Shown here one piece after another: positions 7,310-23,686 of a stretch of 35,035 bases of DNA; the first letter of the stretch is position 1; each line of letters starts with the position of its first letter. This stretch comes from Bacillus sp. 491mf. Lineage in GTDB: Bacteria > Bacillota > Bacilli > Bacillales > Bacillaceae_G. The position numbers were made by a program, and so were the translations under genes. The notes under the pieces were generated by a model, which did no database searches, was not told where the DNA came from, and worked only from the letters and a program-made list of their open reading frames with translations. The DNA lies in contig NZ_FOLV01000040.1 in NCBI RefSeq assembly GCF_900112415.1, forward strand, positions 1 to 35,035, read 5' to 3'.

Positions 7310-7310
7310 A

Positions 7311-7339
7311 AGGTGTGCCAAAGAGCACATCTTTTTTTT
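7311..7339 (+). terminator. Terminator of the HTH/membrane pair
   Basis: AGGTGTGC and GCACATCT pair (one G-U) around CAAAGA, then a run of T. Confidence 0.85.
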
Positions 7340-7452
7340 GAGAATATAGGGGATTTTTCTGTGTTTTTACAAAAGTTTAATGAAATGCTATAGGGAGAGT
7401 TTACAAATCCTTTTTACAATAGAAGAAGTATTGAAATTGGGGGGATTAGAGA

Positions 7453-8889
7453 ATGAGAAAGGCTTTGCTCTGTGGAGGAATTATAGCAAGTGTATTATGG
7501 ACAGGCAATCATGTAAACGCAGAAAAAATCAATCAAGAAACGAAACAATTTGCCGATAAAATAGAAAGTTTACCAAAAGGGAGTATTTCAAATCCAGCAT
7601 TTCGTGGGCAAATAGAGGAAATGGTAAATAAATTTATTCGTAATAAGCATAAGAATACAAAAATAGAAAGAACGGCTATTTTTTCAATGCCAAGCAAAAA
7701 AGCAGAAATCGCGGTATCTTCACCAGATGGTAAGACGTTAGTTGTAACAGAAGCAGACTTAGGACAAATTAGCATCCTTTCAATTGAAAATTTACAAGAT
7801 ATTCAACTGAAAGGGACAGTGAGTTTGAAAGGAATTCATTCCGAAGCAGAGGTGACGAGTACAACAGTTACACCAGATGGTAAGTATGCATTCGTTGCTT
7901 TTCGTACCGGGGATAACTTGTATAATGCGCATAGAGGAAAGATAGCAGTTATAGAATTATCATCCAAAAATATTGTGAAAATATACGAGGTGGGTGTAGG
8001 GCCAGATTCTATTGCTTTATCAAAAGATGGGACAAAGCTTGTAGTTTGTAATGAGGATGAAGAAGGAGATCCAAATGACGGAAATGAAGTCAATATGAAA
8101 AAAACAAAGCGACCGGGTACAATTTCTATCATCACGTTCCCTAATGGAGATGTATTGAAAGGAATTCACCATGAGCTATCAATTGATATAAGTCAGATTG
8201 GAAATGGAACAGTGTACAAGCATGATCCGCAGCCAGAGTATGTGGCAATTAGTCCAAATGGAGAAAAAGCGGCTGTTACATTACAGGAAAATAATGCAGT
8301 TGCTATTGTTAATTTGCAAGGACAAAACATTGAAACGATATTTGGCCTTGGAACAACAAAGCATAAAGCAGATTTGCAAAATGATGGTGTTGTTTCTTTT
8401 CAAGATGAACTGATTGCAAGACCAGAACCAGATGGTATAACGTGGGATCAATCGGGGCGTTTTGTAATTACTGCTAATGAAGGAGACCTAGGGAAAAATG
8501 AATTTAAAGATGGTGTGAAATCAGGTGGACGCAATATATCTGTATGGAGTCAAAACGGTTCGCTTGTATATGATAGTATGAATCTTATTGATGAAAAAGT
8601 GGCAGCTAAAGGTTTGTATTCAGATAGTCGTAGTAATAGCCGAGGTAGTGAAGTAGAAAATGTTGCGACAGGAATAATACAAGAAAGTCCGATTATGGCT
8701 GTGGCTGCTGAAAGGGCAAATGCAGTACTCTTTTTTGATATAACAATCCCGATGTTCCCTGTTTATATTGGTCTTGTTCCTTCAGGAGGAAAAGCACCGG
8801 AAGGGATTCATAAGATTAGCAACCGTAATATATTTGTAAGTGCAGATGAAGCAGATGGAACATTGAGCTTTTATTGTTTGCAAAAATGA
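7453..8889 (+). CDS. Secreted beta-propeller protein (choice-of-anchor I / YVTN-like)
   Basis: A 478-aa exported protein. The signal peptide MRKALLCGGIIASVLWTG ends near VNA. From about residue 65, repeats of the form SPDGKTLVVTE, TPDGKYAFVAF, SKDGTKLVVCNEDEEGDP, SPNGEKAAVTLQENN and DQSGRFVITANEGD are propeller blades. EPDGITW, NSRGSEVENV and KAPEGIHKI match the choice-of-anchor I / alkaline-phosphatase-associated class. NEDEEGDP and DLQNDGVV are acidic and may bind Ca2+. No LPXTG or transmembrane anchor is seen at the C-terminus. The start is supported by GGGGGGA. Function unknown; extracellular binding or an esterase/phytase-like activity is speculative. Confidence 0.75.
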   Translation: MRKALLCGGIIASVLWTGNHVNAEKINQETKQFADKIESLPKGSISNPAFRGQIEEMVNKFIRNKHKNTKIERTAIFSMPSKKAEIAVSSPDGKTLVVTEADLGQISILSIENLQDIQLKGTVSLKGIHSEAEVTSTTVTPDGKYAFVAFRTGDNLYNAHRGKIAVIELSSKNIVKIYEVGVGPDSIALSKDGTKLVVCNEDEEGDPNDGNEVNMKKTKRPGTISIITFPNGDVLKGIHHELSIDISQIGNGTVYKHDPQPEYVAISPNGEKAAVTLQENNAVAIVNLQGQNIETIFGLGTTKHKADLQNDGVVSFQDELIARPEPDGITWDQSGRFVITANEGDLGKNEFKDGVKSGGRNISVWSQNGSLVYDSMNLIDEKVAAKGLYSDSRSNSRGSEVENVATGIIQESPIMAVAAERANAVLFFDITIPMFPVYIGLVPSGGKAPEGIHKISNRNIFVSADEADGTLSFYCLQK

Positions 8890-8894
8890 TAATC

Positions 8895-8928
8895 ATGGCA
8901 CTTCCTAATAAGGAGTGCCATTTCCTTT
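8895..8928 (+). terminator. Terminator of the propeller gene
   Basis: ATGGCACT and AGTGCCAT pair, with an inner CCT/AGG around AATA and a one-base bulge, followed by TTCCTTTGT. The U-tract is weak. Confidence 0.65.
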
Positions 8929-9013
8929 GTCTTGTACATGTCACTTGTATATCTAGCATTCTTACTTTATCATTTTATATAAGGAAAATTTTGTGAAGGA
9001 AAGGAACTGGAGT

Positions 9014-9646
9014 ATGAATAAGAAAAAGATTTATAGTATATTAGCACTTCTTTTATTTATTGTGGGTGGCGTTTTAATTGCCAAACCATTTTATGATGGT
9101 TACAAAGCTGGAAAGATGCAAGACGAAAACATACAAGCTATTAAGAAAATGAAGTATGAAAAACAAGAAACAAAATTTGTTGATGCTTCTAAAATAAATC
9201 AACCGGACTTAGCGGATGTGGCAAATGCTACATTAGATAAGAAACAAGTGATTGGGCGTATGTCGATTCCGAGTATTGGATTAGAACTACCAATTTTAAA
9301 TGGTTCAACAGAGAGAAATTTATTATCAGGCGCAACAACAGTAAAAGAGAAACAAGAGATGGGAAAAGGGAACTATGCATTAGCAGGACATAACATGTCG
9401 AAAAAAGGTGTGTTATTTAGCGATATTTCGAAACTGAAAAAGAATGATAAAGTATATTTATATGATAGTGAAAATGAATATGAATATGCGGTAGAACAAG
9501 TAACGGAAGTCACACCGGATAAATGGGAAGTCGTTGAAGATCAAGGGAAAAATGAGGTAACCCTTATTACATGTACATCTGTACTTGATAATTCCAAGCG
9601 ATATGTAGTATCTGGGAACTTGGTGCAAACGAAAAAAAATAAATAA
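9014..9646 (+). CDS. srtA: Sortase A (class A housekeeping sortase)
   Basis: A membrane-anchored transpeptidase that attaches LPXTG proteins to peptidoglycan. The N-terminal anchor is about residues 5-24 (IYSILALLLFIVGGVLIAKP). The sortase beta-barrel follows, with catalytic His126 (LAGHN), Cys187 (LITCTS) and Arg196 (NSKRYVV). With ATG 9014 as start these numbers equal those of B. anthracis SrtA (His126, Cys187, Arg196), which is why that start was chosen over GTG 8993. AAGGAA is the ribosome binding site. The gene is 210 codons, single, and closed by a bidirectional terminator. Its substrates are not in this window. Confidence 0.95.
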   Translation: MNKKKIYSILALLLFIVGGVLIAKPFYDGYKAGKMQDENIQAIKKMKYEKQETKFVDASKINQPDLADVANATLDKKQVIGRMSIPSIGLELPILNGSTERNLLSGATTVKEKQEMGKGNYALAGHNMSKKGVLFSDISKLKKNDKVYLYDSENEYEYAVEQVTEVTPDKWEVVEDQGKNEVTLITCTSVLDNSKRYVVSGNLVQTKKNK

Positions 9647-9649
9647 TTA

Positions 9650-9682
9650 AAAAAAGATGAGGGGCATCCCCTCATCTTTTTT
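9650..9682. terminator. Bidirectional terminator between srtA and the peptide transporter
   Basis: AAAAAAGATGAGGGG and CCCCTCATCTTTTTT form a 15-bp perfect stem with a CAT loop. It has U-tracts on both strands and serves two convergent genes. Confidence 0.92.
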
Positions 9683-11066
9683 AGTCCATCCATTTTGCTA
9701 ATTTTTTGGAAAGTAATAGTAAGATACATCCTAAGAAAATAGCGACAGCTCCAATAATAGCAAATACTTCTGAATAACCTAATGAAGTTGTAAAGTTTGC
9801 TAACTGTCCACCTAAAATATTCGCGACACCTGTACTTGCTAACCAAACGCCCATTAATAAAGATGCGAGTTTGATAGGAGCAAGTGCACTTACCATTGAA
9901 AGTCCGACTGGAGATAAGAATAATTCCCCTAATGTATGGAATAGGTAAGTAAAGACGATAAAGAGTAAGTTTGCTTTTTCTGTAATTTGTTGTTCATTAC
10001 TTCCTGTTTTTAACGTAGCAACAACAAGAACCATATAACCAATTCCAAGTAAGATCATCCCAAGAGCCATTTTTGTTGGGACTTTTAAATCACCACGTTT
10101 TGTAGAAGCAAGCTTTGTCCAAAATGCAGAAACAATCGGTGCTAATAAAATAATGAACAATGGGTTTACAGACTGAAACCAAGATGTTGGAATTTCCCAA
10201 CCGAATATAGAACGGTCTACAAAGCTATTTGTATATAATGTTAAAGAACTACCAGCTTGTTCAAATCCAGCCCAGAAGAAAACAACAAAACACGTTATAA
10301 TGATAATCACAGCTGTATGCTGTTTCTCTTTTTTCGTTAATGGTGTATTGCCAGCTGTTTTGTTTCCTGTTCCTGTTTGTAACGCTGCTGTCGGTTTTTT
10401 ACCAATATCACCAAGAAAACGATTTGATAATGTTACAAATAAAATTTGTCCGATAATCATCCCGATAGATGCAGCCAAAAATCCATAGCGGAAACCGTAA
10501 TGCATAACGCCATCTACTGTTGTTTTAAACAAATCTTCTGATAAATATCCGCAAACGAGTGGAGCGAGGAATGAACCGACGTTAATTCCCATATAGAAAA
10601 TTGTAAAAGCACCATCGCGGCGCGAATCGTTTTCTGCATATAATTCTCCGACAAGAGTGGAGATATTTGGTTTGAAGAAACCGTTCCCGATAATAATGAA
10701 CGCTAATCCGAGGTATAGTCCTAATTGGCTTTGCAGTGCAAATAACGTAATGTTACCAATTGCAATTGTTATACCGCCAAGTGTAATCGCTAATCGTCTA
10801 CCAAGATAACGATCGGTTAAAAATCCGCCAATTAATGGGGTGAAATAACAAGCCCCTGTATAAAATCCGTAAATTGTAAGTGCCCAGCTCTTACTAAAAC
10901 CAAGCCCACCGTTTATTAAGGCAGTTGTTAAATATAATGTTAATAATCCTCGTAATCCGTAATAGCTAAATCGTTCCCACATTTCTGTGAAAAAGAGTAA
11001 GTACAAACCTGGAGGATGCTTCTTTTTTGGCTGTTGTTTTTTATCTAACTGTAGCGCATATTCCAT
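9681..11066 (-). CDS. dtpT: POT/PTR2 family proton-dependent di/tripeptide transporter
   Basis: A 461-aa polytopic membrane protein importing di- and tripeptides with protons. The signature EMWERFSYYG (Glu28, Glu31, Arg32) is the ExxER(F)xYYG motif of TM1. FYTGACYFTPLIGGFLTDR is the PTR2 signature 1 region, and FTIFYMGINVGSFLAPLVCG matches signature 2. About 14 hydrophobic segments are seen, with a cytoplasmic linker at about residues 225-250. AGGAGG lies before the ATG. The gene is single. An inverted repeat AAAGTAAA...TTTACTTT lies 27-62 bp upstream of the start and may be an operator. Confidence 0.92.
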   Translation of the reverse strand: MEYALQLDKKQQPKKKHPPGLYLLFFTEMWERFSYYGLRGLLTLYLTTALINGGLGFSKSWALTIYGFYTGACYFTPLIGGFLTDRYLGRRLAITLGGITIAIGNITLFALQSQLGLYLGLAFIIIGNGFFKPNISTLVGELYAENDSRRDGAFTIFYMGINVGSFLAPLVCGYLSEDLFKTTVDGVMHYGFRYGFLAASIGMIIGQILFVTLSNRFLGDIGKKPTAALQTGTGNKTAGNTPLTKKEKQHTAVIIIITCFVVFFWAGFEQAGSSLTLYTNSFVDRSIFGWEIPTSWFQSVNPLFIILLAPIVSAFWTKLASTKRGDLKVPTKMALGMILLGIGYMVLVVATLKTGSNEQQITEKANLLFIVFTYLFHTLGELFLSPVGLSMVSALAPIKLASLLMGVWLASTGVANILGGQLANFTTSLGYSEVFAIIGAVAIFLGCILLLLSKKLAKWMD

Positions 11067-11092
11067 ATGTAATTCCTCCTAACATAAAAAAC

Positions 11093-11128
11093 AAAGTAAA
11101 TAGTTTTAGATGATTAATAGTTTACTTT
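11093..11128 (-). promoter_or_regulatory. Inverted repeat upstream of the peptide transporter gene
   Basis: AAAGTAAA (11093-11100) and TTTACTTT (11121-11128) form 8-bp inverted arms 20 bp apart in the putative promoter region. It could be a regulator site. No named consensus was recognised. Confidence 0.3.
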
Positions 11129-11224
11129 ATTAACTTTTTAAAGTCAATAAAGGTCTATTTTTTGTAAAAAATTATTCACAGATAATGTGGGGGAGAATAA
11201 ACTTTGAAACAGTGCTTTCTTCCG

Positions 11225-11290
11225 TTATCGCCCGTTCTTTGCAATATATCGGCGATTCGACACAATTTAAAGACAATTCGACAATAATTA
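11225..11290. repeat. Possible dispersed intergenic element with ATCGCC/GGCGAT arms
   Basis: ATCGCC (11227-11232) and GGCGAT (11251-11256) flank an AT-rich centre. They are followed by TCGACACAATTT and ACAATTCGACAAT, which share CGACA and ACAATT words. The GC-rich words stand out from the AT-rich intergenic background. I have an impression of similar sequence elsewhere in B. cereus group genomes but cannot verify it. The rest of 11129-11336 holds no gene. Confidence 0.3.
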
Positions 11291-11336
11291 ACATACAAGT
11301 AGTCGATCTACTGAGCTGAATCATACTAAAAAATGA

Positions 11337-11377
11337 AAGGAGCTATCCAAAAAGTTTCACTTTTTGGATAGCTCCTT
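11337..11377 (-). terminator. Terminator of the secreted GATase-like protein gene
   Basis: AAGGAGCTATCCAAAAAGT (11337-11355) pairs perfectly over 19 bp with 11359-11377 around a TTC loop. Read on the minus strand it is followed by TCATTTTTTAG. Confidence 0.85.
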
Positions 11378-11416
11378 AATATATAAGAATAATACTTTTG
11401 GGCAGCCCTATTCTTT

Positions 11417-12994
11417 TTATTTAATAGCAGATGTTCCAACTACAACCGTTTCACTTGCTTTTACAGTCGTGTTTTGACGAAGGCGTAATGTAGCTTGCCC
11501 TGTTGTATAAGGAGCAATTTGTACATTTACTACCTTTTCAGCGACACCTTGGCTATTTGTCGTAAAGGAAAATGCATTACTATAACCGTAAGAAGAAGGC
11601 CATAGGCCGTTTTCGTTTTGAACTTTTGCTACTTGTGTGCCACCACTTGTATAAATACCTAAAGAGTAATTATTGTAAGTAGTGTTTGGTAATAAATGAT
11701 TTGCTTGTATTTTTATTTGAAATACACCGCTGTTTGGAAGAATGCTAGGGTGAATAAAGTTATAATCTTTTGTTGAGACGTTTCCATCATTATTATTATT
11801 GCTATTATTATAGCCGTAAGAGCCAGACTTAAATGTACTTGAATTAAACCATTGATATCCTTGGTTAGGGGCACCCCATGGTTCTGGTTGCGGCTCAGTT
11901 GATGCACTTGGTTGTTCAAATGTTTTTAATGCTGTTGGTGTGTCTAGTTGTAATCCGCTTACTTGGTTTAAACTAGTATATGTTTCTTTTGTAGAGAGCC
12001 ATTTTACAACATTTGTTAATAAAGTAGCGTCGCTTTCTTCTTTATATCCATCATATGTTTTTTTAGACTGTCCCGTATCTTCACGAACATATTTTGGCGT
12101 TGCATCTTCAACTGGCGAAGAGTCACCGATAAAGGCTGCTTTTCCTAAACCAACTTTTGCGACTGCAACGAAAGGACCTTCAGCGATGCCGCCGCCGTTA
12201 TATACACCGCTATCAACAGCGTTATTCCACTTAGGTAAACTTTCTGGTAAGTAGACAATTCCTTTTGCTACATTTGGGTTTACAATTGCAATTGTAGATC
12301 CCGCATGCATGGCAACAGATGAAACACCTGTAGTAATTCCGAATGATTGATCAGGTGCTACAATTTTATTTGCAGAAACATCACCAATTGCATTGTAGCG
12401 AAAGCGTACGCCAAAGTTGTTTGCTAGCCAGTCAGAACTTTCTACACCTTGCATAGCTTGTGAAGATGTTTCTTCAGAAGACATCCCTTTTGCTGGATTT
12501 TCCCATGCTCCGCGGCGATACCCGTTGAAAACTTCTGAGGAATCCCAGCGATTTTTATTGCGGTCTGCATTATAATGATCGGCTATAAAAAAGATACTTC
12601 CGCCATTTTTCACATATTGCAGCATCGCATCTTGTTCTGATTTTTTATACGGAATATTTGCTTCTGGAACGATAAATACGTTGTAATCTTTTAAGTCATC
12701 ATACGTAATAGGTGTTGATTTACGTAGCTCCTTTACAAAGTAGCCTTTGTTTGCAATGCCATTTCCGAAATCAGAAAATCCGCCATCAATAACCCAATCA
12801 GCTGTTCCTGCCGTTTGAGCATGTGTATTATCAAATAATACTTTTTTCCCAGCGTTTTCGTTCACAATTTTTGCAGCAATTTGCGGAGCTGGATCTAAAG
12901 CGCTTTCAGCAAAAGTCGTCGAACTAAATACGGTAGCCATACTTAATGTCAATCCTGTTGCGAGTGTGAGTTTCAGCCATTTTTCTTTCTTCAT
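11417..12994 (-). CDS. Secreted protein with GATase-like N-terminal and beta-sandwich C-terminal domains
   Basis: A 525-aa exported protein. The signal peptide MKKEKWLKLTLATGLTLSMA... ends near TFA (residue 29). Residues about 48-340 look like a class-I amidotransferase-like/DUF4350-type Rossmann domain: KKVLFDNTHAQTAGTADWVI, NVFIVPEANIPY, VKNGGSIFFIADHYN, GLGKAAFIGDSSPVED. No obvious catalytic triad was identified. A Pro/Ser linker and Asn-rich stretch (NNSNNNNDGN) lead to a C-terminal beta-rich module (about 395-520: FKSGSYGYNN, LLPNTTYNNYSLGIYTSGG, QATLRLRQNTT). Function unknown. An extracellular carbohydrate or nucleic-acid binding role is possible. AGGGGGA precedes the ATG. Single gene. 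Confidence 0.7.
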   Translation of the reverse strand: MKKEKWLKLTLATGLTLSMATVFSSTTFAESALDPAPQIAAKIVNENAGKKVLFDNTHAQTAGTADWVIDGGFSDFGNGIANKGYFVKELRKSTPITYDDLKDYNVFIVPEANIPYKKSEQDAMLQYVKNGGSIFFIADHYNADRNKNRWDSSEVFNGYRRGAWENPAKGMSSEETSSQAMQGVESSDWLANNFGVRFRYNAIGDVSANKIVAPDQSFGITTGVSSVAMHAGSTIAIVNPNVAKGIVYLPESLPKWNNAVDSGVYNGGGIAEGPFVAVAKVGLGKAAFIGDSSPVEDATPKYVREDTGQSKKTYDGYKEESDATLLTNVVKWLSTKETYTSLNQVSGLQLDTPTALKTFEQPSASTEPQPEPWGAPNQGYQWFNSSTFKSGSYGYNNSNNNNDGNVSTKDYNFIHPSILPNSGVFQIKIQANHLLPNTTYNNYSLGIYTSGGTQVAKVQNENGLWPSSYGYSNAFSFTTNSQGVAEKVVNVQIAPYTTGQATLRLRQNTTVKASETVVVGTSAIK

Positions 12995-13190
12995 AATGAA
13001 TCCCCCTAAAGTAAGTTAGTTTAAGTAAGAATGCGATTCGTTCAGCTAACTATCAGCTAATCATACGGATAAAAATGCCCCCTATATTAATTTAACGGAA
13101 TATAACGAAAGAAAAAAGAGGGAATTAATAAATTTTTGTAAACTTATCGTGAATTTTGTTGAGAAATATTTTTACATACAGAAATAGAGG

Positions 13191-13222
13191 AAAAAAATCC
13201 CTCCCTCAGATGAGGAAGGGAT
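13191..13222 (-). terminator. Terminator of the amino-acid permease gene
   Basis: On the minus strand ATCCCTTCCTC and GAGGGAGGGAT form an 11-bp stem (one G-U) with an ATCT loop, followed by TTTTTT. Confidence 0.9.
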
Positions 13223-13227
13223 CAACA

Positions 13228-14625
13228 TTATCCAATTTGCGAAGATGATTTCGATGATTTATCTGTTGTATGAAATCCTTTTGCATAATAAACAACTACT
13301 AAAGCGATGAGCCAAATTGGTCCAACAATTAATGCGATACGTGTATCAGTAGAATATGCCATAATGCCTAATACTAAAGCAAGGAAAGCGAGCGTCACAT
13401 AGGAGCTAAGTGGATACAATGGCATTTTATAAGTTAATTTATTTTGCGCTTCCTGTGATAATCCTTTGCGGAAACGAAGCTGCGCAACTACAATGACACC
13501 CCAAGTCCAAATTGCTCCGAACGTGGAAATACTCGTTAACCATGTAAATACTTTTGCAGGAACAACGTAGTTTAATACAACGCCTATTAACAATACGAAA
13601 GCTGTTGCTAAAATTCCTTTACTTGGGATTCCATTTTTATTTAACTGACCAAATTTTTCTGGTGCTTGTTTTTGCTGCGCTAATGTAAATAGCATACGGC
13701 CTGTACTAAAGAGACCACCATTACAAGAAGAAAGAGCAGCTGTTAAGACAACAAAGTTAATAATTCCTGCTGCTTTCGCAATACCGATTTGTTCAAACGT
13801 TAGTACAAATGGACTTCCTTTTTCACCAATTTCATTCCATGGATAGATTGCCATCATAACGAATAAGGCACCTACATAGAAGATTAAAATGCGCCAAAAA
13901 ACGTTATCAATCGCTTTAGACAATGTTTTTTTCGGATTTTCTGCTTCACCGGCTGTTACACCAATTAGCTCTACTCCTAAGTAAGCAAATAGTACCATTT
14001 GTAATGATAGAAGCAGGCCAGAAAAACCATTTGGAAACCAACCGCCGTGTGACCAAAGGTTTGAAATTCCAGTCGCTACGCCGCCGTTTCCAAAACCGAA
14101 TAAAATAATGCCAGCGCCAATTATTATCATACAGATAATTGTGACAATTTTAATTAAAGCAAACCAAAACTCAAGTTCTCCATACACTTTAACCGATAAA
14201 AAGTTTAATGCGCTCATTAATACAAGAGCAATTAACGCCCAAACCCAACGTTCCGTATTTGGGAACCAATATTGCATATAAATGCCTGCCGCTGTAATTT
14301 CAGCCATACAAGTTACAACCCATAAGAACCAATAGTTCCAACCAGTGATATAACCTGCTAGTGGGCCTAAATAGTCATGTGCATATTTACTGAATGAACC
14401 AGCAACAGGTTGTTCAATTGCCATTTCTCCAAGCGCCCGCATAATGAAAAAGATCGCAAGGCCAGCAATGATATAACCGAATAAAATGGACGGTCCTGCT
14501 AGTTTAATAGCGGAAGCTGATCCTAAAAATAGTCCAACTCCAATAGCAGACCCAAGTGACATAAGGGTAATATGACGTTGTTTTAATCCGCGGTTTAAAT
14601 TATCTGCTTTGTTTGTGTGCTGCAT
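13228..14625 (-). CDS. APC-superfamily amino acid permease (ProY/AapA-like)
   Basis: A 465-aa, 12-TM amino-acid/H+ symporter of the AAT family. LNRGLKQRHITLMSLGSAIG is the N-terminal family signature, with the GSAIGVGLFLGSA unwound helix 1. Also seen are RALGEMAIEQPVAGSFSKYA, ELEFWFALIKIVTI, GVELIGVTAGEAENPKKTLS and SSCNGGLFSTGRMLFTLA. The set resembles ProY, AapA and YbgF-type permeases, but the substrate cannot be fixed from sequence. AGGAGG lies before the ATG. A sequence matching the CcpA cre consensus lies 33-46 bases upstream of the start, suggesting catabolite repression of amino-acid uptake. Confidence 0.88.
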   Translation of the reverse strand: MQHTNKADNLNRGLKQRHITLMSLGSAIGVGLFLGSASAIKLAGPSILFGYIIAGLAIFFIMRALGEMAIEQPVAGSFSKYAHDYLGPLAGYITGWNYWFLWVVTCMAEITAAGIYMQYWFPNTERWVWALIALVLMSALNFLSVKVYGELEFWFALIKIVTIICMIIIGAGIILFGFGNGGVATGISNLWSHGGWFPNGFSGLLLSLQMVLFAYLGVELIGVTAGEAENPKKTLSKAIDNVFWRILIFYVGALFVMMAIYPWNEIGEKGSPFVLTFEQIGIAKAAGIINFVVLTAALSSCNGGLFSTGRMLFTLAQQKQAPEKFGQLNKNGIPSKGILATAFVLLIGVVLNYVVPAKVFTWLTSISTFGAIWTWGVIVVAQLRFRKGLSQEAQNKLTYKMPLYPLSSYVTLAFLALVLGIMAYSTDTRIALIVGPIWLIALVVVYYAKGFHTTDKSSKSSSQIG

Positions 14626-14656
14626 AATAAACCTCCTGTATTTAGTAAGAAAAATA

Positions 14657-14672
14657 TTGTATCCGCTTACAA
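14657..14672 (-). promoter_or_regulatory. Predicted cre (CcpA) site upstream of the permease
   Basis: Minus-strand TTGTAAGCGGATACAA fits the cre consensus WTGNAANCGNWNNCW at every defined position. It lies just upstream of the ribosome binding site, a location that in Bacillus usually gives repression. Confidence 0.6.
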
Positions 14673-14775
14673 ATTTATTTAACTATTTAAAATTATAAAA
14701 CATTTCTATCTGTTATGCTACAAAAATAGACAATGTTTTCTGTACTATAAAAATTGGTTTTCGTATTTTGATATC

Positions 14776-14888
14776 TAAGTCACTGTTACGAAAAAAACAC
14801 AATGCCCAGCACTCGCTCACTCCTTGTGTTTTAAAAACATAAAAAGTGGCAGAAAAGGGCCCTGAGCGCTTCCGTAGATTTGAAATAA
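14776..14888 (-). repeat. Dispersed intergenic repeat, copy B (truncated)
   Basis: It contains TGTTACGAAAAA, CAGCACTCGCTCACTCCTT, GTTTTAAAAACAT, TGGCAGAAAAGGGCCCTGA and CGTAGAT, in the same order as copy C. The second hairpin arm and the GGGGAG end are lost after the CGTAGAT motif. Confidence 0.7.
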
Positions 14889-14941: not shown

Positions 14942-14970
14942 TTGCAATAAAAATTTAATCGTGTTAGTGT
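14942..14970 (+). promoter_or_regulatory. Promoter of the leader-peptide/rRNA methyltransferase transcript
   Basis: TTGCAA (14942-14947), a 17-bp spacer and TAGTGT (14965-14970). The predicted start near 14977 would give a leader of roughly 175 nt before the methyltransferase. Confidence 0.45.
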
Positions 14971-15013
14971 CTTTATGGGTTAAAACCTATACATCTACAA
15001 AGGAGTTAATCTC

Positions 15014-15043
15014 ATGATCATTCAATTCATTCGATATAGATAG
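15014..15043 (+). CDS. Leader peptide MIIQFIRYR of the rRNA methyltransferase gene
   Basis: A 9-codon ORF with a strong ribosome binding site, AAAGGAG (14999-15005), 8 nt before the ATG. It ends in Arg-Tyr-Arg followed by TAG. Arg-X-Arg motifs in short leader peptides are known ribosome-arrest sequences for macrolides and ketolides (for example the RLR peptides of ErmDL type). The stop codon lies only 5 nt before the left arm of a terminator hairpin. A ribosome paused on the last codons would therefore cover that arm and allow readthrough. The role is inferred from this arrangement. Confidence 0.65.
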   Translation: MIIQFIRYR

Positions 15044-15048
15044 TGATA

Positions 15049-15122
15049 GGTATAGACTACTTTAAAATCCGACTCATATTTTTTTGAAAATATGATGAGG
15101 GTTTATTTGTCTATGCCTTTTT
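15049..15122 (+). terminator. Conditional terminator (attenuator) in the methyltransferase leader
   Basis: GGTATAGAC (15049-15057) pairs with GTCTATGCC (15109-15117, one G-U), followed by TTTTT (15118-15122). The loop contains a second hairpin, TCATATTTT (15074-15082) with AAAATATGA (15087-15095). Upstream of the leader ORF, ACCTAT (14985-14990) can pair with ATAGGT (15046-15051), and CTATAC (14987-14992) with GTATAG (15050-15055). Either would compete with the terminator. The position between promoter and gene fits transcription attenuation. Confidence 0.65.
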
Positions 15123-15153
15123 CATTTATCTAAAAATGAATGAGGTGGCTTCT

Positions 15154-16041
15154 TTGTATAAAATGAACAAAAGAATGCAGAGCGCAGAATATTTAAGTAA
15201 ATTTGAACATATTTTCAAGTGTCCTATTTGCGACTCAACAATGAAGGTTTTTGAGTTAAAGAGTTTAATCTGCTCAAATAACCATACATTTGATTTTACT
15301 AAACAAGGATATATCAACTTGACAACTCAACTAGTAAAAACTAAATACACTAAGGAACTTTTTGAAGCGCGAAGAAAAATTATTGCAGAGGATGGTTTTT
15401 TTGCACTATTAAGTCAGGTAATTGTTGAAAGCATAAATAAGCATGTCGCTGTTAAAAAAGAATCAATATCTGTAATTGATATGGGATGTGGCGAAGGTTC
15501 TCAACTAACTAGCATTTGTGAAATCGCTAGTTCTGCTTATAAAAAAATAGTTACAGGAGTAGGGATTGATCTTTCTAAAGAAGGTGTTTTGGTAGCCGCT
15601 AAGAACTACACTAATAAGATTTGGACTGTTGCCGACCTAGCAAATACACCATTTCAAGATAAGCAATTTGATATTATTCTGAATATCTTATCACCTTCCA
15701 ATTATGCAGAATTTAATAGATTGTTAAAAGCTGATGGTTTAGTAATTAAAGTCGTTCCTGGAAGTGAATACTTAAAAGAATTAAGAGAAATTATATTCGA
15801 TGGATCTGAAAAACAATCTTATTCTAATGTTGATACTGTTGAACGATTTAATGAGAACTTCCAATTGATAGATAGTTCAAGATTATGTTATACCGTGACA
15901 CTTGATAATCTATCAATGCAATCGTTAGTTCAAATGACTCCTTTATTATGGGCGACCACAAAAAAACAAGTTAAATCATTCTTGGAAGGGAGTTCAGCTC
16001 AAATCACTGTTGATTTAGAAATATTAATCGGTAAGAACTAA
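15154..16041 (+). CDS. rlmA: RlmA-family 23S rRNA (guanine-N1) methyltransferase
   Basis: A SAM-dependent methyltransferase of the RlmA/TlrB group, which modify G745 or G748 of 23S rRNA in the peptide exit tunnel; G748 methylation affects tylosin-type macrolides and telithromycin. The N-terminal zinc site is CPIC...CSNNH (Cys23, Cys26, Cys40, His44), then KQGYINL. SAM motif I is VIDMGCGEG (about 107-115). LSPSNYAEFNRLLKADGLVI and VPGSEYLKELREIIF are typical of RlmA. The start chosen is TTG 15154, 5 nt after GAGGTGG at 15142-15148; ATG 15136 lies before that site and ATG 15163 is too far from it. The length of 295 aa is somewhat above the usual 270-285. Expression is probably controlled by the upstream attenuator. 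Confidence 0.85.
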   Translation: MYKMNKRMQSAEYLSKFEHIFKCPICDSTMKVFELKSLICSNNHTFDFTKQGYINLTTQLVKTKYTKELFEARRKIIAEDGFFALLSQVIVESINKHVAVKKESISVIDMGCGEGSQLTSICEIASSAYKKIVTGVGIDLSKEGVLVAAKNYTNKIWTVADLANTPFQDKQFDIILNILSPSNYAEFNRLLKADGLVIKVVPGSEYLKELREIIFDGSEKQSYSNVDTVERFNENFQLIDSSRLCYTVTLDNLSMQSLVQMTPLLWATTKKQVKSFLEGSSAQITVDLEILIGKN

Positions 16042-16072
16042 CTTTATAAAAATTTCATCCTTAACTAAAAAG

Positions 16073-16116
16073 AAAAACTCCATTTTGATCAATCTTTTTT
16101 TCAAAATGGAGTTTTT
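16073..16116 (+). terminator. Terminator of the methyltransferase gene
   Basis: AAAAACTCCATTTTGA and TCAAAATGGAGTTTTT form a 16-bp stem around a T-rich loop, with A- and T-tracts at the ends. Confidence 0.9.
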
Positions 16117-16170
16117 ATATTTGTTGTTAAATAATGATTGAAGGGAAAGTTCTATTCAAACTTTATTCTC

Positions 16171-16220
16171 ACCCTACATCTACACATGGCCAGACGCTCT
16201 TGACATCCCGAAAAGAAAGA
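16171..16220 (-). repeat. Dispersed intergenic repeat, fragment C' next to copy C
   Basis: On the minus strand it reads CTTTCTTTTCGGGATG, AAGAGCGTCTGGCCATGTGT and AGATGTAGGGTGAG. This is the left part of the repeat, ending inside the hairpin loop, in the same orientation as the complete copy about 40 bp away. Confidence 0.55.
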
Positions 16221-16261
16221 GGGACGTCTATATATATAAATTCATTTTCATGTTTCAACAT

Positions 16262-16412
16262 CCAAATCGTTGCTACGAAAAATATCCCATGCCTAGCACT
16301 CGCTTACTCCTTTTGTTTTAAAACATGGCAAGTAGCAGAAAAGGGCCCTGACCGCATCTACGCATGGCCAGTTTATCTCGCTCTCCCCAAAAAAAGAAAG
16401 GTTTTTGATCTT
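16262..16412 (-). repeat. Dispersed intergenic repeat, copy C (near complete)
   Basis: The minus strand carries the full order: CTTTCTTTTTTTGGGGAGAG, CTGGCCATGCGTAGATGCGG, TCAGGGCCCTTTTCTGC, TACTTGCCATG, TTTTAAAACAAAAGGAGTAA, GCGAGTGC, and TTTTTCGTAGCAACGATTTG. The hairpin arms (plus strand CTGACCG at 16348, TGGCCAG at 16365) keep the 17-nt offset seen in copies A, F and G. A 98-codon open frame across this region is spurious. Confidence 0.8.
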
Positions 16413-16471: not shown

Positions 16472-17215
16472 TTACAAAATAGTAATAGCTTGTTTTCCCA
16501 TTTGCTCCCATGCTTTTTCAAATTGAGAGCGCGGAATACTTTTACGCGGTTTACTTGCTAGTGGATCATTTACATATACAAAGTTTTGATCATAACCAGT
16601 AATAACTACACTATGTTCAAAATATGTAATCTTTAATTCTCCGGCATTTGTATTCCAACTTTCAAAGCTATCCGCAGCTAGCGGCTGAAAAGTTGTATTA
16701 GCAATAATCCATACTGGCGAACCAGCGCTAAGTACTTTATATATATCTTTGATTTCTCTTCCTGATAAATCAATCGTTTTATCAGGAACATATTTTTGTG
16801 CTAATTTATAAATTGGTTGATGGTATACACCGTAGCCTCGTTCAGACTTTGTGTAAATATTTCCAACAAATCCTTCGTGTGGATTTCCCTTCACACCGTT
16901 TGATTCAAATGGGACACGAGTAATTTCATTCGCAAGCGTCATTTTGTCCACTTTAATTCCTTTATATTGCAACAACATTGCTAAACTAGTCACTTCACAG
17001 CCGCGCTCTAATTCAGGAAGCTGTTTAATAAATGGAACATTTTCAATCATCGCTTGCTCTTTCATTTTGAATGAAAAGTCTACACGTAGTTCTTGCGTTT
17101 TTTGAAAGATTTTATTTTTTCCTGTTTCAATTACGCCCATAACTTCTTTATTGCATGCCACGCAAACAATAACGCAAATACTTAAAATACATATGTATTT
17201 GATGCTTCTAAACAT
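16472..17215 (-). CDS. C39-like cysteine peptidase family, exported lipoprotein-like
   Basis: A 247-aa protein. The N-terminus MFRSIKYICILSICVIVCVAC is a signal peptide with a possible lipidated Cys21, although Cys at -3 is unusual. Residues about 58-247 form a peptidase_C39_2 fold: VPFIKQLPELERGCEVTSLA gives Gln65 (oxyanion) and Cys73, YFEHSVVITGYD gives His201, and VYVNDPL gives Asn216/Asp217, so a complete papain-like catalytic set is present. The substrate is unknown; peptide or peptidoglycan cleavage outside the membrane is inferred. It is monocistronic with its own terminator, divergent from the permease at 17507. No ABC exporter or bacteriocin precursor is nearby, so it is not the bacteriocin-processing C39 type. 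Confidence 0.8.
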   Translation of the reverse strand: MFRSIKYICILSICVIVCVACNKEVMGVIETGKNKIFQKTQELRVDFSFKMKEQAMIENVPFIKQLPELERGCEVTSLAMLLQYKGIKVDKMTLANEITRVPFESNGVKGNPHEGFVGNIYTKSERGYGVYHQPIYKLAQKYVPDKTIDLSGREIKDIYKVLSAGSPVWIIANTTFQPLAADSFESWNTNAGELKITYFEHSVVITGYDQNFVYVNDPLASKPRKSIPRSQFEKAWEQMGKQAITIL

Positions 17216-17506
17216 ATCTCTAACTCCATTACATAATTATTTTCCTACATTTTGAAAAGGATACTCTCTTCATTGTACCTTTGTTTGTACTAGTTTACTA
17301 GAACGATTCTATAGATTGTTATTCCAACATTCAGATCTAAAAATTCTTACTTTTTTAAATAGAAAGAAAAATAAATATACAATTTTAGAATATTTTGTTA
17401 AAATAAAAACATGTTTAACTTGGTTAAGTTTATTTGATGAGGGAAAATTGAATTGGCGGTTCACTAATGCTTTCTAAACATTATAAAAATATGAGGTGAG
17501 GGGTAT

Positions 17507-18913
17507 ATGATACAAGAAGAGAAGCAGCAAAATGAGCTAAAACGTACGATGCAAAGCAGACACCTCTTCATGATTGCTCTTGGGGGAGTTATCGGAACTG
17601 GATTATTTATGGGATCTGGACAAACTGTTCACAATGCTGGACCAGGAGGAGCCATTCTTGCCTATTTAGTTGGCGGATTTGTTATGTATTTAACGATGCT
17701 TTGTCTCGGGGAGCTGACGGTAGCAATGCCTGAATCAGGTTCTTTTCAAAGTTATGCTAGCAAATATATTTCACCTGGTTTTGGATTTGTGGTGGGTTGG
17801 ATGTATTGGCTAAACTGGGCTGTAACCGTCGGAGTTGAATTAACGACTGTCAGCATTTTAATGAAGCGCTGGTTTCCAGATGTTTCATCTTGGATATGGT
17901 GTGTTTTATTTGCTGCCATACTCTTTATTGTAAACGCTTCCTCTGCGCGTGCATATGCAGAAGCTGAATTTTGGTTTGCAAGTGTTAAAGTAATAACAAT
18001 TATTCTTTTTATTTTACTCGGCGGCGCTGTTATGTTTGGTGTATTAGACTTTAGTGGTAAGCCGGCACCAATGTTCCATAACTTCACAGAAAATGGCGGG
18101 TTATTTCCAAACGGGTTGCTAGCTGTTCTTCTTACAATGATTACCGTTAACTATGCGTTCCAAGGAACAGAATTAATTGGTATTGCTTCGGGTGAAAGTA
18201 AGCAGCCGGAAATAACAATACCGCGTGCTATAAAAAGTACAATTTGGCGAACACTTTTCTTTTTTGTTCTTGCCATTTCAGTGGTTGTAGGGTTACTACC
18301 GTGGAAAGAAGCGAATCTTGTGGAAAGCCCATTCGTACTCGTTTTTGACACAGTTGGAATCCCGTATGCAGCAGACATTATGAACTTTGTTATTATTACA
18401 GCTGTATTATCCGTAGCAAACTCTGGTTTGTATGCAAACTCCCGTATGCTGTGGGCGATGGCAAAACAAGGGATGGGAAGTCAGCGCTTTACAAAATTAA
18501 CGAAAAAAGGGGTACCGATCAATGCCTTAATTTTCAGCTTAATCTTTGCTGGACTTTCTCTTTTAACAAGTGTATTTGCCGCTGATACCGTCTTTTTAGT
18601 ATTAACATCTATTGCGGCTATGGCAGCTGTTGTTGTTTGGATGTCGATTGCTGCATCTCAATTTTTCTTTAGAAGAGAATTTATTAAGAACGGCGGGGAT
18701 ATACGAGATTTAAAATATCGTGCACCGCTTTATCCACTTGTTCCTATTGCAGCGTTCTCTTTAAACTTTATTACATTTATAAGCTTAGCATTTATTCCAG
18801 AGCAACGAATTGCTTTATATTGCGGCATACCATTCATGATTATTTGTTACATTTTTTATAAATTAAAATATAAAAAAGTTGTCACATTTGACAAGCAAAA
18901 AAACGTCTCTTGA
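17507..18913 (+). CDS. APC-superfamily amino acid permease (AAT family)
   Basis: A 468-aa, 12-TM amino-acid permease. Family motifs are LKRTMQSRHLFMIALGGVIG, GTGLFMGSGQTV, CLGELTVAMPESGSFQSYAS, EAEFWFASVKVITI, FQGTELIGIASGESKQPE and NSGLYANSRMLWAMAKQG. It is closest in feel to the MmuP/RocE/YbxG permeases, so substrates such as S-methylmethionine, arginine or asparagine are possible. It differs from the permease at 13228, so the two are not a recent duplication. The start is supported by GAGGTGAGGGG. It is single and followed by a terminator. The 291-bp upstream region shows no T-box or known riboswitch. Confidence 0.88.
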   Translation: MIQEEKQQNELKRTMQSRHLFMIALGGVIGTGLFMGSGQTVHNAGPGGAILAYLVGGFVMYLTMLCLGELTVAMPESGSFQSYASKYISPGFGFVVGWMYWLNWAVTVGVELTTVSILMKRWFPDVSSWIWCVLFAAILFIVNASSARAYAEAEFWFASVKVITIILFILLGGAVMFGVLDFSGKPAPMFHNFTENGGLFPNGLLAVLLTMITVNYAFQGTELIGIASGESKQPEITIPRAIKSTIWRTLFFFVLAISVVVGLLPWKEANLVESPFVLVFDTVGIPYAADIMNFVIITAVLSVANSGLYANSRMLWAMAKQGMGSQRFTKLTKKGVPINALIFSLIFAGLSLLTSVFAADTVFLVLTSIAAMAAVVVWMSIAASQFFFRREFIKNGGDIRDLKYRAPLYPLVPIAAFSLNFITFISLAFIPEQRIALYCGIPFMIICYIFYKLKYKKVVTFDKQKNVS

Positions 18914-18939
18914 AAATAAACTAAATATACAAAATATTC

Positions 18940-18967
18940 AGCTGTCTTATCATAAGATAGCTTTTTT
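18940..18967 (+). terminator. Terminator of the second permease gene
   Basis: AGCTGTCTT and AAGATAGCT pair (one G-U) around ATCAT, followed by TTTTT. Confidence 0.88.
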
Positions 18968-19202
18968 CTATTTATTGGATATCCTGGTATAACTTTATTT
19001 ATCTTAAAATTCCAAAAAACAAAACATGCTTCTAAAAATGGTTTACAATATATTCAAGTTGCAAATGGTTTTGAGTGTAAAAACCGTGTATTTGTGTCTA
19101 TTTTTTAACAATATCTCAAAAACTATTGCTATCTATAAATTAATAGGTTTATATTGTTTTATTGGCATAGTTTCAATCCAAGGAGAAAGGAGATTTTCAA
19201 TC

Positions 19203-20072
19203 GTGCAACTGAAAAAAAAATTTTGGAAGTTGGCTTCTCTTCTTCCACTATCATTACTCTTGTTCCTCGGTGGATGCGAAAAAATCGCTGTATTAAATCC
19301 ACAAGGGCCTGTTGCAAAATCGCAGTATGACTTAATTATTTGGTCGCTCATTCTGATGTCCGTAATAATTGTAGTTGTATTTGTCCTATTTACAATCATT
19401 TTAATTCGTTACCGTGAAAAACCAGAAAACATGGATTATGAGCCACCTGATATACACGGTAATACTCTTTTAGAAGTTATTTGGACTATTTTCCCTATTA
19501 TCATCGTGGTTGCGTTAGCAATTCCCACAGTGAAAGCAACATATGCATCGGAAAAACCACCAGAGCAAACGAAAGATATTAAACCTGTTGAAATTTACGT
19601 TACATCTGCTAACTGGAAATGGTTATTCAGTTATCCTGAGGAAGGAATTGAAACCGTTAACTATTTAAATGTACCAGCAGGTGTACCAATTCAATTTAAG
19701 TTAACTTCTGTTGGTCCAATGAATGCTTTCTGGGTTCCAGAACTTGGTGGAATGAAGTATACAATGGATGGCATGATTATGGATTTATATTTACAAGCTG
19801 ATAAGCCAGGCTCTTACACTGGACGTAGTGCAAACTTCTCCGGTGAAGGATTTACTCACATGGAATTTGAACTTGAAGCGAAAACAAAAGAAGAATATAA
19901 CAAGTGGGTAAAAGAAGCAAAAGGTGCTCCTAATTTATCAGAAAACAAATATAAAGAAATCATTCAACCGGGTGTAGTAGGGCGTATGACATTCTCTAAT
20001 ACACATTTAAAATATGTAGATCCAAAATCACTTGAATATTGTGATTACAACTACTACAAAAACAAAAAGTAA
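19203..20072 (+). CDS. qoxA: Cytochrome aa3 quinol oxidase subunit II
   Basis: Subunit II of the menaquinol-oxidising aa3 terminal oxidase. The start chosen is GTG 19203, 10 nt after AAAGGAG; it gives a proper lipoprotein signal, MQLKKKFWKLAS with lipobox LGGC (Cys25). The longer open frame from 19026 lacks a ribosome binding site. Two TM helices lie at about 42-65 and 90-110, then a cupredoxin-like external domain (VEIYVTSANWKWLF, PMNAFWVPELGGMKYTMDGM). The CuA Cys/His ligands of cytochrome c oxidases are missing, as expected for a quinol oxidase. First gene of the four-gene qox operon. Confidence 0.95.
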   Translation: MQLKKKFWKLASLLPLSLLLFLGGCEKIAVLNPQGPVAKSQYDLIIWSLILMSVIIVVVFVLFTIILIRYREKPENMDYEPPDIHGNTLLEVIWTIFPIIIVVALAIPTVKATYASEKPPEQTKDIKPVEIYVTSANWKWLFSYPEEGIETVNYLNVPAGVPIQFKLTSVGPMNAFWVPELGGMKYTMDGMIMDLYLQADKPGSYTGRSANFSGEGFTHMEFELEAKTKEEYNKWVKEAKGAPNLSENKYKEIIQPGVVGRMTFSNTHLKYVDPKSLEYCDYNYYKNKK

Positions 20073-20105
20073 TAACGAATATTCCAACAGATTGGAGTGA
20101 ATATA

Positions 20106-22040
20106 GTGAAGCTTGATGAATTTTTTGTCACAGGCGATCCGATTATCTACGGAGCGGATGCATCTATTGTTCTTGTGACGTTAGGAATCATTTTTGTGCT
20201 GACAAAGTACAAAAAGTGGAGATGGCTTTGGGATGAGTGGTTAACTTCTGTTGACCATAAGAAAATTGGTTTGATGTATATCATTTCAGCAATTGTTATG
20301 ATGTTCCGCGGCGGTATGGACGGATTAATGATTCGTGCTCAGTTGACGTTCCCTGACACAACATATTTAAACGCTGAACACTATAACGGAATCTTTACAA
20401 CACACGGTACAGTTATGATTCTCTTCATGGCAATGCCGTTTGTTATGGGACTTATGAACGTTGTTGTTCCTCTTCAAATTGGAGCACGTGACGTTGCATA
20501 TCCTTTCTTAAATGCATTAAGTTTTTGGTTATTCTTCGTAGGTGCTATGTTATTTAACATCGCCTTCGTTATCGGTGGTTCTCCAGACGCTGGGTGGACA
20601 TCATACTTCCCAATGGCTGGTACAGAATTTAGCCCTGGGGTAGGAAATAACTACTATGCAATTGCAGTGCAGATTTCAGGTCTCGGGACGCTGATGACAG
20701 GGATTAACTTCCTTGTAACAATCTTGAAAATGCGTGCACCAGGCATGAAATTAATGCAAATGCCAATGTTTACTTGGTCTATTTTAATTACATGTCTTAT
20801 CATCATCTTTGCATTCCCAGTATTAACAGTTGCTCTTGCATTAATGTCATTTGACCGTTTATTCGATGCTCACTTCTTTACGATGGCGAGCGGCGGTATG
20901 CCAATGCTTTGGGCGAACTTGTTCTGGGTATGGGGTCACCCTGAAGTATATATCGTTATTTTACCGGCATTTGGTATTTTCTCTGAAATCGTAAGTACGT
21001 TCTCACGTAAACGATTATTTGGATATACAGCAATGGTTTACTCAATGGTTGCAATCGCAACTTTAAGTGGTCTTGTATGGCTGCATCACTTCTTTACAAT
21101 GGGTGCAGGTCCAGCAGTTAACTCATTCTTCTCGATTTCGACAATGGCGATTTCGATTCCAACTGGTGTTAAGATCTTTAACTGGTTGTTTACGCTTTAT
21201 AAAGGACGTATTCGTTTTACAGTTCCAATGCTTTGGTCATTGGCGTTTATTCCAAACTTCGTAATTGGTGGGGTTACGGGGGTTATGCTTGCGATGGCAG
21301 CAGCTGATTATCAATACCATAACAGCTACTTCCTAATCGCTCACTTCCACTACGTATTAATCGCAGGTACAGTATTCGCGATGCTTGCTGGATTTACATT
21401 CTGGTATCCAAAGATGACTGGTCATATGCTAAATGAACGTCTTGGTAAATGGACATTCTGGATCTTTATGATCGGATTTAACATCTGTTTCTTCCCAATG
21501 TATTTCCTAGGTTTAGACGGTATGACTCGTCGTATGTACACTTACTCTGCAAACCTTGGATGGGGCGGATTAAACTTAATCGCATCTGTCGGTGCAGTAA
21601 TGATGGCAGTCGGCTTCGCTATATTATGCTACAACGTAATTTATAGCATTCGTCATGGTGAGCGCGATGTAACTGGAGATCCTTGGGATGCTCGTACACT
21701 TGAATGGGCGACACAATCTCCTGTACAACATTACAACTTCGCAAAATTACCAGAAATTAAGTCTAGTGATGTATTCTGGGAAATGAAGAAAAATGGTGAG
21801 TCTATTATACCAAAACCTGAAGAATTAAAACCGATTCATATGCCGAGCAATTCAGGTGTTCCAATTATTATGTCTTGCTTTATCGGTCTTGCAGGTTTTG
21901 CGTTAGTATTTAGCTGGTTCGGGTTAGCAATTGTCGGTGGTATTGGTATGTTAGGTTGTATGATCTGGCGCTCGTTTGATTACGACGACGGATACTACGT
22001 TAGCGTAGATGAAATTAAAAAGACAGAACATGTTGCATGA
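20106..22040 (+). CDS. qoxB: Cytochrome aa3 quinol oxidase subunit I
   Basis: The catalytic heme-copper subunit that reduces O2 to water and pumps protons. The start chosen is GTG 20106 ([12 protein letters not shown], like B. subtilis QoxB) with GGAG 9 nt upstream; GTG 20097 overlaps that site. It is 644 aa. Ligands: His100 (TTHGTVM) and His415 for the low-spin heme; His278 and Tyr282 (WGHPEVY, the Cu-B His-Tyr pair); His327-His328 (WLHHFF) for Cu-B; and His413 in AHFHYV for heme a3. It has about 14-15 TM helices. It lies 33 bp after qoxA and 13 bp before qoxC. Confidence 0.96.
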
Positions 22041-22053
22041 GAGGTGAAACGAA

Positions 22054-22656
22054 ATGGCGGCTTTAGATAAAAGCTTACCTCTAGAATATCAATCCGAACA
22101 AAGCAGATTGAATATTTTAGGGTTTTGGGTTTTCCTTGGGGCTGAAATCGTGCTGTTTGCAACGCTTTTCGCCTCTTACCTAGTATTAGCTGGTCGTACG
22201 GCGGACGGTCCAACACCAGCACAGATTTTCGAAATAAAACCTGTTATGATTGAAACACTTTTACTTTTAACAAGTAGTTTTACATGCGGGATTGCAATTC
22301 ATGAAATGCGTAAAGAAAACAAAAATGGTATGCTTCTATGGTTTATCATTACGTTACTATTAGGTGCTGGCTTCCTTTACATGGAGATTGAAGAGTTTAT
22401 GATGTATGTGGGCCAAGGTGCTACACTACAAACAAGCGGATTCTTATCTGGATTCTTCGTTCTTCTTGGAACGCACGGTGCCCACGTAACAGGTGGTATC
22501 ATTTGGGCAACTTGTGTTATTATCCAAATTTTAAAACGAGGACTGACACCAGTTACAGCTCGTAAAGTATTTATTATCAGCTTATACTGGCATTTCCTTG
22601 ATGTTGTTTGGATCTTCATTTACACACTAGTTTACTTGAACGGGATGGTGGCGTAA
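22054..22656 (+). CDS. qoxC: Cytochrome aa3 quinol oxidase subunit III
   Basis: A 200-aa, five-TM subunit of the COX3 family. Typical motifs are LGFWVFLGAEIVLFATLFAS near residue 28 and FFVLLGTHGAHVTGGIIWA near 133, plus the C-terminal SLYWHFLDVVWIFIYTLVYL. AGAGGTGA precedes the ATG. It lies between qoxB and qoxD, 2 bp before qoxD. Confidence 0.96.
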   Translation: MAALDKSLPLEYQSEQSRLNILGFWVFLGAEIVLFATLFASYLVLAGRTADGPTPAQIFEIKPVMIETLLLLTSSFTCGIAIHEMRKENKNGMLLWFIITLLLGAGFLYMEIEEFMMYVGQGATLQTSGFLSGFFVLLGTHGAHVTGGIIWATCVIIQILKRGLTPVTARKVFIISLYWHFLDVVWIFIYTLVYLNGMVA

Positions 22657-22658
22657 TA

Positions 22659-22958: not shown

Positions 22959-22965
22959 TATATTT

Positions 22966-23002
22966 AAAAACCTGTTGGGACATTGTCTTAGCAGGTTTTT
23001 TT
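22966..23002 (+). terminator. Terminator of the qox operon
   Basis: AAAAACCTG and CAGGTTTTT pair around an interrupted stem (GGAC/GTCT inside), ending in a T-run. Confidence 0.85.
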
Positions 23003-23599: not shown

Positions 23600-23686
23600 G
23601 TATATCGCTATTGATCAAGAGTTAGAGATTATATACAAGTTAAAAAACTTTTCATTTTAAGTGGAGACAAGAGCATCATAAAGAAC

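What the first reader, a model, noticed from the sequence alone, without database searches (positions are those of the whole stretch)
14942..15163. Probable antibiotic-responsive leader-peptide attenuator controlling an RlmA-type 23S rRNA methyltransferase
Between a promoter (TTGCAA/TAGTGT) and the methyltransferase lies a 9-codon ORF, MIIQFIRYR-stop, with a strong ribosome binding site. Five nucleotides after its stop begins the left arm of an intrinsic terminator (GGTATAGAC with GTCTATGCC-TTTTT). A sequence upstream of the ORF can pair with the same left arm. Arg-X-Arg leader peptides are known macrolide/ketolide arrest sequences in erm-type regulation, and RlmA/TlrB enzymes methylate the macrolide-facing exit tunnel. 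A ribosome stalled on RYR would mask the left arm and switch the gene on. The arrangement is seen directly; the induction model is inference. I do not know of this leader being described for an RlmA gene.
Basis: partly seen in the sequence, partly recalled or inferred. Interest (0 to 1): 0.88.

Follow-up and report, generated by a model that had tools for sequence, protein, structure and literature searches.

The report
Known tylosin-sensing leader of tlrB
This is another copy of an antibiotic-sensing switch already worked out in Bacillus subtilis, in which a drug-stalled ribosome on a nine-residue peptide turns on a gene that protects the ribosome from tylosin, so it is real but not new.

Summary
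A 9-codon ORF (MIIQFIRYR, 15014-15043) with a good SD precedes a terminator (15049-15057 / 15109-15117 plus T5) upstream of an RlmA-type 23S rRNA methyltransferase gene. The induction idea is essentially right but already published. Yakhnin et al. 2019 (PMC6851288) describe the B. subtilis tlrB (yxjB) leader, whose peptide is MIIQFIRYR letter for letter: tylosin-dependent stalling at RYR, NusA-dependent termination, an SD-sequestering hairpin, NusG-dependent pausing, and 180 related leaders. The window has sequence counterparts of all these parts; its predicted start site lies 177 nt before the TTG start codon, as in B. subtilis. Among 35 distinct leaders (window included), 35 precede a tlrB homologue and 33 keep the 35-nt ATG-to-terminator spacing. 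The organism was not identified. Verdict: already known, low interest.

The parts
14942..14970 (+). sigma-A-type promoter: TTGCAA, 17 nt, TAGTGT, with TGn before the -10; predicted start site about 14977
   Evidence: G.TA...T invariant in the 15-leader alignment; 14977 lies 177 nt before TTG 15154, the leader length reported for B. subtilis. Weak consensus, not listed.
14999..15005 (+). Shine-Dalgarno of the leader peptide (AAAGGAG)
   Evidence: AGGAG invariant or nearly so in the 15 rows
15014..15043 (+). leader ORF MIIQFIRYR-stop (RYR arrest motif), followed by in-frame TGA and TAG
   Evidence: identical to the B. subtilis tlrB leader peptide printed in PMC6851288; exact peptide in 27 of 35 distinct leaders
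15049..15057 (+). terminator left arm GGTATAGAC, expected to be masked by a ribosome stalled at RYR
   Evidence: 35 nt from the ATG in 33 of 35 leaders
15065..15104 (+). apical (pause) hairpin
   Evidence: I2: 18-nt arms, 78% complementary; inner segment z = -3.5, 1 of 200 shuffles as good
15106..15114 (+). predicted NusG-dependent pause element: TTT 15106-15108 (counterpart of T123-T125) and pause positions TAT 15112-15114 (counterpart of U129-U131)
   Evidence: against the positions; TTTATTTGTCTATG invariant but for one A in the 15 rows; other exceptions exist (L081; L005)
15109..15122 (+). terminator right arm GTCTATGCC and T5
14996..15158 (+). long hairpin that would sequester the tlrB SD and start codon (and the leader SD)
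   Evidence: minimum-energy fold; consensus inner pairs; counterpart mapped with RNase T1 in B. subtilis
15142..15148 (+). Shine-Dalgarno of tlrB (GAGGTGG)
   Evidence: AATGAATGAGGTG invariant in the 15 rows
15154..16041 (+). tlrB/RlmA-type 23S rRNA guanine-N1 methyltransferase, TTG start (mechanical ORF from 15136)
   Evidence: Pfam Zn_ribbon_RlmA 41.8 bits, cut-off 27; NCBIfam RlmA 170.9 bits, below its cut-off of 303; PDB 1p91 RlmA E 1.1e-30

Best explanation
It is the tlrB (RlmA-II) attenuator already characterised in B. subtilis. Without drug, the ribosome finishes MIIQFIRYR and leaves, the terminator 15049-15122 forms, and any read-through RNA folds into the 14996-15158 hairpin that hides the tlrB SD. 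With tylosin bound, the ribosome stalls with Tyr in the P site and Arg waiting in the A site. Its leading edge covers the terminator left arm, so RNA polymerase, delayed by NusG at TTTATTTGTCTAT, reads through, and the SD stays open. The enzyme then methylates G748 and gives tylosin resistance, and methylated ribosomes are expected no longer to stall. Shown here: the parts and their conservation. Shown in the paper for B. subtilis only: termination, stalling, pausing, methylation and resistance. Inferred: that the window's copy behaves the same way.
For: The published peptide is identical. There are tandem stops in both. The leader is 177 nt in both, counted from the predicted start site. Terminator, pause element and SD hairpin have direct counterparts. 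Of 35 distinct leaders, 35 precede a tlrB homologue and 33 keep the 35-nt spacing. A whole-genome pattern search of 150 genomes found the leader in 22, the reversed-pattern control being 0 in every row; all 22 places lie just upstream of tlrB. In 15 leaders (14 from loci fetched by the protein, plus the window; loci without the leader dropped), codons 3, 6 and 9 never change the amino acid, and codons 7 and 8 change it in 1 and 3 of 15. The exact peptide is kept in L056 and L060, fetched by protein, although TlrB there is only 46 and 43% identical. A scan for the terminator alone, blind to the peptide, gave 38 distinct hits in 107 records; 36 carry a leader of this kind, one is cut by its contig end and one is a reverse-strand chance hit.
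Against: No experiment on this organism. The enzyme scores below the NCBIfam cut-offs for RlmA and for the G748 enzymes Erm(32), ChrB and MyrA, so its exact target base is inferred. Terminator arms are nearly invariant, so they give no covariation (0 of 26 pairs). Most tlrB homologues fetched lack this leader: 5 of 30 loci have it, and about 10 of 35 loci.
Confidence: 0.93

Rival explanations
1. Same attenuator, but tuned in this organism to another ribosome drug (another 16-membered macrolide or a ketolide) rather than tylosin.
For: The paper suggests that specificity may change as leader peptides diverge; R/K-X-R/K is an arrest motif of ketolides in particular (start of the abstract of PMC8298421 in the listing).
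Against: The peptide here is identical to the tylosin-responsive one; erythromycin gave no toeprint on it (data not shown in the paper).
Confidence: 0.05
2. One reading: a three-way switch with an upstream antiterminator pairing with the left arm.
For: A 6-nt complementary run (CTATAC 14987-14992 with GTATAG 15050-15055) exists.
Against: 45 of 200 shuffles of the upstream 34 nt did as well; 4 of 35 leaders reach 10 or fewer of 200; the paper did not identify an overlapping antiterminator.
Confidence: 0.02
3. A chance short ORF before an ordinary terminator.
For: Short ORFs are common.
Against: Same peptide, spacing and pause element in many species, and experimental proof in B. subtilis.
Confidence: 0.005

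Closest known systems
B. subtilis tlrB (yxjB) leader, Yakhnin et al. 2019 (PMC6851288)
   Same: Peptide MIIQFIRYR letter for letter, tandem stops, terminator, SD-sequestering hairpin, pause element, 177-nt leader, RlmA-II type gene
   Different: Distance from the terminator GG to the pause C is 61 nt here against 56 in the published numbering (G72 to C128), so the apical part differs; three tandem stops here. The organism was not identified.
B. subtilis vmlR leader (ABC-F factor; PMC9226507, search listing; passage on vmlR in PMC12288461)
   Same: NusG pausing with transcription and translation attenuation, drug-responsive
   Different: Another gene family and other drugs
Macrolide-inducible erm leaders (recalled; listing)
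   Same: Leader-peptide stalling controls a 23S rRNA methyltransferase
   Different: Erm targets A2058 (recalled); the general mechanism is translation attenuation (discussion)

Membership tests
tlrB tylosin-responsive attenuator | Short leader peptide ending in R/K-X-R/K directly upstream of a tlrB homologue | tested here: met
   MIIQFIRYR 15014-15043, identical to the published peptide
tlrB tylosin-responsive attenuator | Intrinsic terminator whose left arm lies within reach of the ribosome stalled at RYR | tested here: met
   Sequence and fold, 15049-15122; termination itself not tested; the simple scan did not list it
tlrB tylosin-responsive attenuator | Hairpin sequestering the tlrB SD | tested here: met
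   Predicted fold 14996-15158, z -6.69; not probed
tlrB tylosin-responsive attenuator | NusG-dependent pause with a hairpin before it | tested here: inconclusive
   Sequence counterpart TTTATTTGTCTAT and hairpin present; pausing needs experiment
tlrB tylosin-responsive attenuator | Tylosin-dependent stalling and induction | not testable with these tools
   Shown for B. subtilis only
RlmA family (PF21302 zinc ribbon plus methyltransferase) | Zinc ribbon and methyltransferase domain above Pfam cut-offs | tested here: met
   PF21302 41.8 bits (cut-off 27), PF08241 34.8 (21.2)
RlmA-II / TlrB (G748) | Methylates G748 | not testable with these tools
   NCBIfam RlmA (G745) 170.9 of 303 bits; Erm(32) 83.3 of 550; ChrB 78.2 of 620; MyrA 64.7 of 625: none meets its cut-off
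Rfam-listed RNA | Match to a curated family | tested here: not met
   No match over the leader at gathering score; at permissive settings only a snoRNA hit, E 0.44, 18.6 bits against a gathering score of 46

The most novel reading that the evidence does not exclude
Around a nearly frozen 9-residue sensor, a minority of lineages have altered it (RFR, QYIRYR, MMIHFIRYR, IVYR, IQFMRYR) or damaged it (start codon ATT together with a changed terminator in Siminovitchia terrae; only the 3' half of the leader left in an uncultured Bacillus). These natural variants may respond to other macrolides or express the enzyme without a drug, giving a ready series for mapping how nascent-chain residues set drug specificity.
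Probability: 0.2. Interest if true: 0.35.

Novelty: already known. Interest (0 to 1): 0.12.

Why it matters
It shows the tylosin-sensing tlrB leader outside B. subtilis with the same peptide, spacing and pause element, also next to plasmid-borne copies in Priestia. The mechanism is published, so the gain is one more instance and a conservation check, not a new principle.

Tried and rejected
Upstream antiterminator: tested against shuffles in 35 leaders and rejected. Covariation of the terminator and inner SD stems: uninformative because the arms are nearly invariant. Rfam: no family. Promoter/terminator scan: listed neither element.

Organism: no genome is held. Window 17000-20072 had no match at E 1e-180 in 299 genomes of the order of G263 (which warns that an empty answer shows nothing) and none in plasmids. 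Window 1-14700 had no plasmid match. For 19026-35035, 214 plasmid records matched; the 12 listed all match the 16S end. For 34765-35035 the same number of records matched; the 10 listed are Priestia at 87-88%, and the 26 records at 95-99% identity were not among the rows listed. None identified the host.

Mobile origin: 4 plasmid records match leader plus gene at the DNA level, the two that cover at least 80% at 74 and 77%; 77 plasmid records match the protein, best 64%; no phage match. Repeats flank the gene. By eye I saw no transposase among the ORFs; I ran family searches on the methyltransferase only.

Dropped before counts: repeat fetches of the same locus (L036-L040, L070, L079, L091) were removed before the count of 35; L033 and L035 were left out of the scans but were in those. 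One search also flagged short ORFs ending R-N-K or R-I-R 19 nt before the genes of L011 and L015; they bear no likeness to this leader and I set them aside. L094 has the terminator but its leader is cut by the contig end.

Not examined: the supplementary figures of PMC6851288 (180 leaders), so I cannot say whether this organism is among them.

Full report
What is there. The RNA 14980-15170 folds at -53.7 kcal/mol, z = -6.69, 0 of 200 shuffles as good. The simple consensus scan listed neither promoter nor terminator. The downstream ORF is an RlmA-family methyltransferase (Pfam zinc ribbon and methyltransferase above cut-off; PDB 1p91 RlmA, E 1.1e-30). Its NCBIfam scores for RlmA (G745) and for the G748 enzymes Erm(32), ChrB and MyrA are all below the curated cut-offs. 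Its start is most likely TTG 15154, after GAGGTGG: the two Priestia plasmid homologues are annotated from that position (compared with the match starts).

It is in print. A full-text search for leader peptide, RlmA, attenuation and Bacillus gave PMC6851288; I read its abstract and passages and sections 8, 12 and 13. A search for the letters MIIQFIRYR returns that paper alone. In B. subtilis, yxjB (renamed tlrB) encodes RlmA-II, which methylates G748 and confers tylosin resistance. Its 9-residue leader peptide is MIIQFIRYR; changing RYR to AYA virtually eliminated induction; tylosin gave a toeprint, erythromycin did not (data not shown). [quoted passage not shown] The authors aligned 180 such leaders; I did not see the supplementary figures. 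A 2025 review repeats the model (passages of PMC12288461).

Fit of the window. TTG 15154 minus 177 gives 14977, seven nt after the -10 hexamer; B. subtilis has a 177-nt leader. The ATG-to-GG offset is 35, and TTTATTTGTCTATGCCTTTTT is present at 15102-15122.

Conservation. The protein search of genome contigs gave 35 loci. Eight of the 35 have the ATG-started leader with R-X-R (L002, L003, L006, L007, L013, L014, L017, L018); one has ATT for that ATG (L001, although an ATG further upstream reads in frame into the same peptide); one has VYR (L004); one keeps only the 3' half (L005). The other 24, including seven from Pseudoalteromonas and the two short fragments L033 and L035, gave no leader by my patterns. 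Among 199 relatives of Bacillus badius, 31 have a tlrB homologue at E 1e-60 or better; 30 loci were fetched, and 5 carry the leader, one of them B. badius itself again (L040 = L002). Many tlrB homologues thus do without it or use another leader. A leader-ORF pattern found 22 of 150 relatives of G163, with 0 for the reversed control in every row. After removing duplicates, and adding Priestia plasmid L105 and the window, 35 distinct leaders remain: 35 of 35 precede a tlrB homologue; the spacing is 35 nt in 33, 34 in one (L014) and 36 in one (L082); the exact peptide occurs in 27, RFR in 4 (L006, L007, L043, L087), other changes in L003, L004 and L017, and the changed start in L001. Nineteen of the 35 were found by the peptide pattern, so peptide identity in those is by construction, whereas spacing, terminator and gene linkage are not. 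The Priestia filamentosa plasmid copy (L106) reads MIIQFMRYR and is outside the 35. A scan for the terminator alone, blind to the peptide, gave 38 distinct hits in 107 records: 36 with a leader of this kind, one cut by its contig end (L094), one reverse-strand hit; most of these records had been fetched for tlrB or the leader.

Results against or neutral. The consensus terminator and inner SD stems show no covariation, 0 of 26 pairs, because the arms are nearly invariant. The inner (pause) hairpin folds better than chance, at 10 or fewer of 200 shuffles, in 22 of 35 leaders and not in the other 13; the window scores 1 of 200. The upstream antiterminator run is reached by 45 of 200 shuffles in the window and by more than 10 of 200 in 31 of 35 leaders. 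Rfam has no family for it.

Context. The gene lies between two copies of a repeat (a 91-nt and a 43-nt block, 78 and 84% identical, about 1487 nt apart). DNA matches to leader plus gene exist on plasmids (4 records, the two with at least 80% cover at 74 and 77%) and none in phages. The two best genomic matches found are 85% identical: Siminovitchia terrae (where only leader and gene were asked) and G263, where the match covers leader and gene but not the neighbours of a 5.7-kb query. This fits, but does not prove, a horizontally acquired gene.

Verdict. A real, well-conserved instance of a published mechanism; novelty 'already known'; interest 0.12.

Noticed in passing
L001:930-1056: Siminovitchia terrae leader has ATT in place of the ATG, and in the same copy a changed terminator right arm and T run; an ATG further upstream reads in frame into the same peptide. 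Possible joint decay of the switch beside an open tlrB frame.
   Followed up: partly
L004:2875-2904 and L005:2780-3040: Oceanobacillus jeddahense leader reads MIIQFIVYR (RYR broken); an uncultured Bacillus keeps only the 3' half of the leader before tlrB.
   Followed up: partly
window 14746-14872 and 16233-16358: Two copies of a repeat (91 nt at 78%, 43 nt at 84%) flank the leader-tlrB unit, about 1487 nt apart; no plasmid match to the left copy.
   Followed up: partly
window 16043-16184: A stretch just after tlrB, with a 22-nt inverted repeat, recurs in 17 plasmid records (Bacillus arachidis 86%, 4 places; staphylococci, Listeria and others), with no gene listed under the match, and in several copies in some genomes such as G247: possibly an uncharacterised small repeat or terminator element.
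   Followed up: partly
L106:5112-7075: On Priestia filamentosa plasmid pBEH5 the leader-tlrB unit sits near a predicted msr-type ABC-F gene and a second putative RNA methyltransferase.
   Followed up: no
window 190-750: Long serine-rich frame (repeated ASSCFL units) on the + strand, probably the antisense of a repetitive gene (inference by eye).
   Followed up: no
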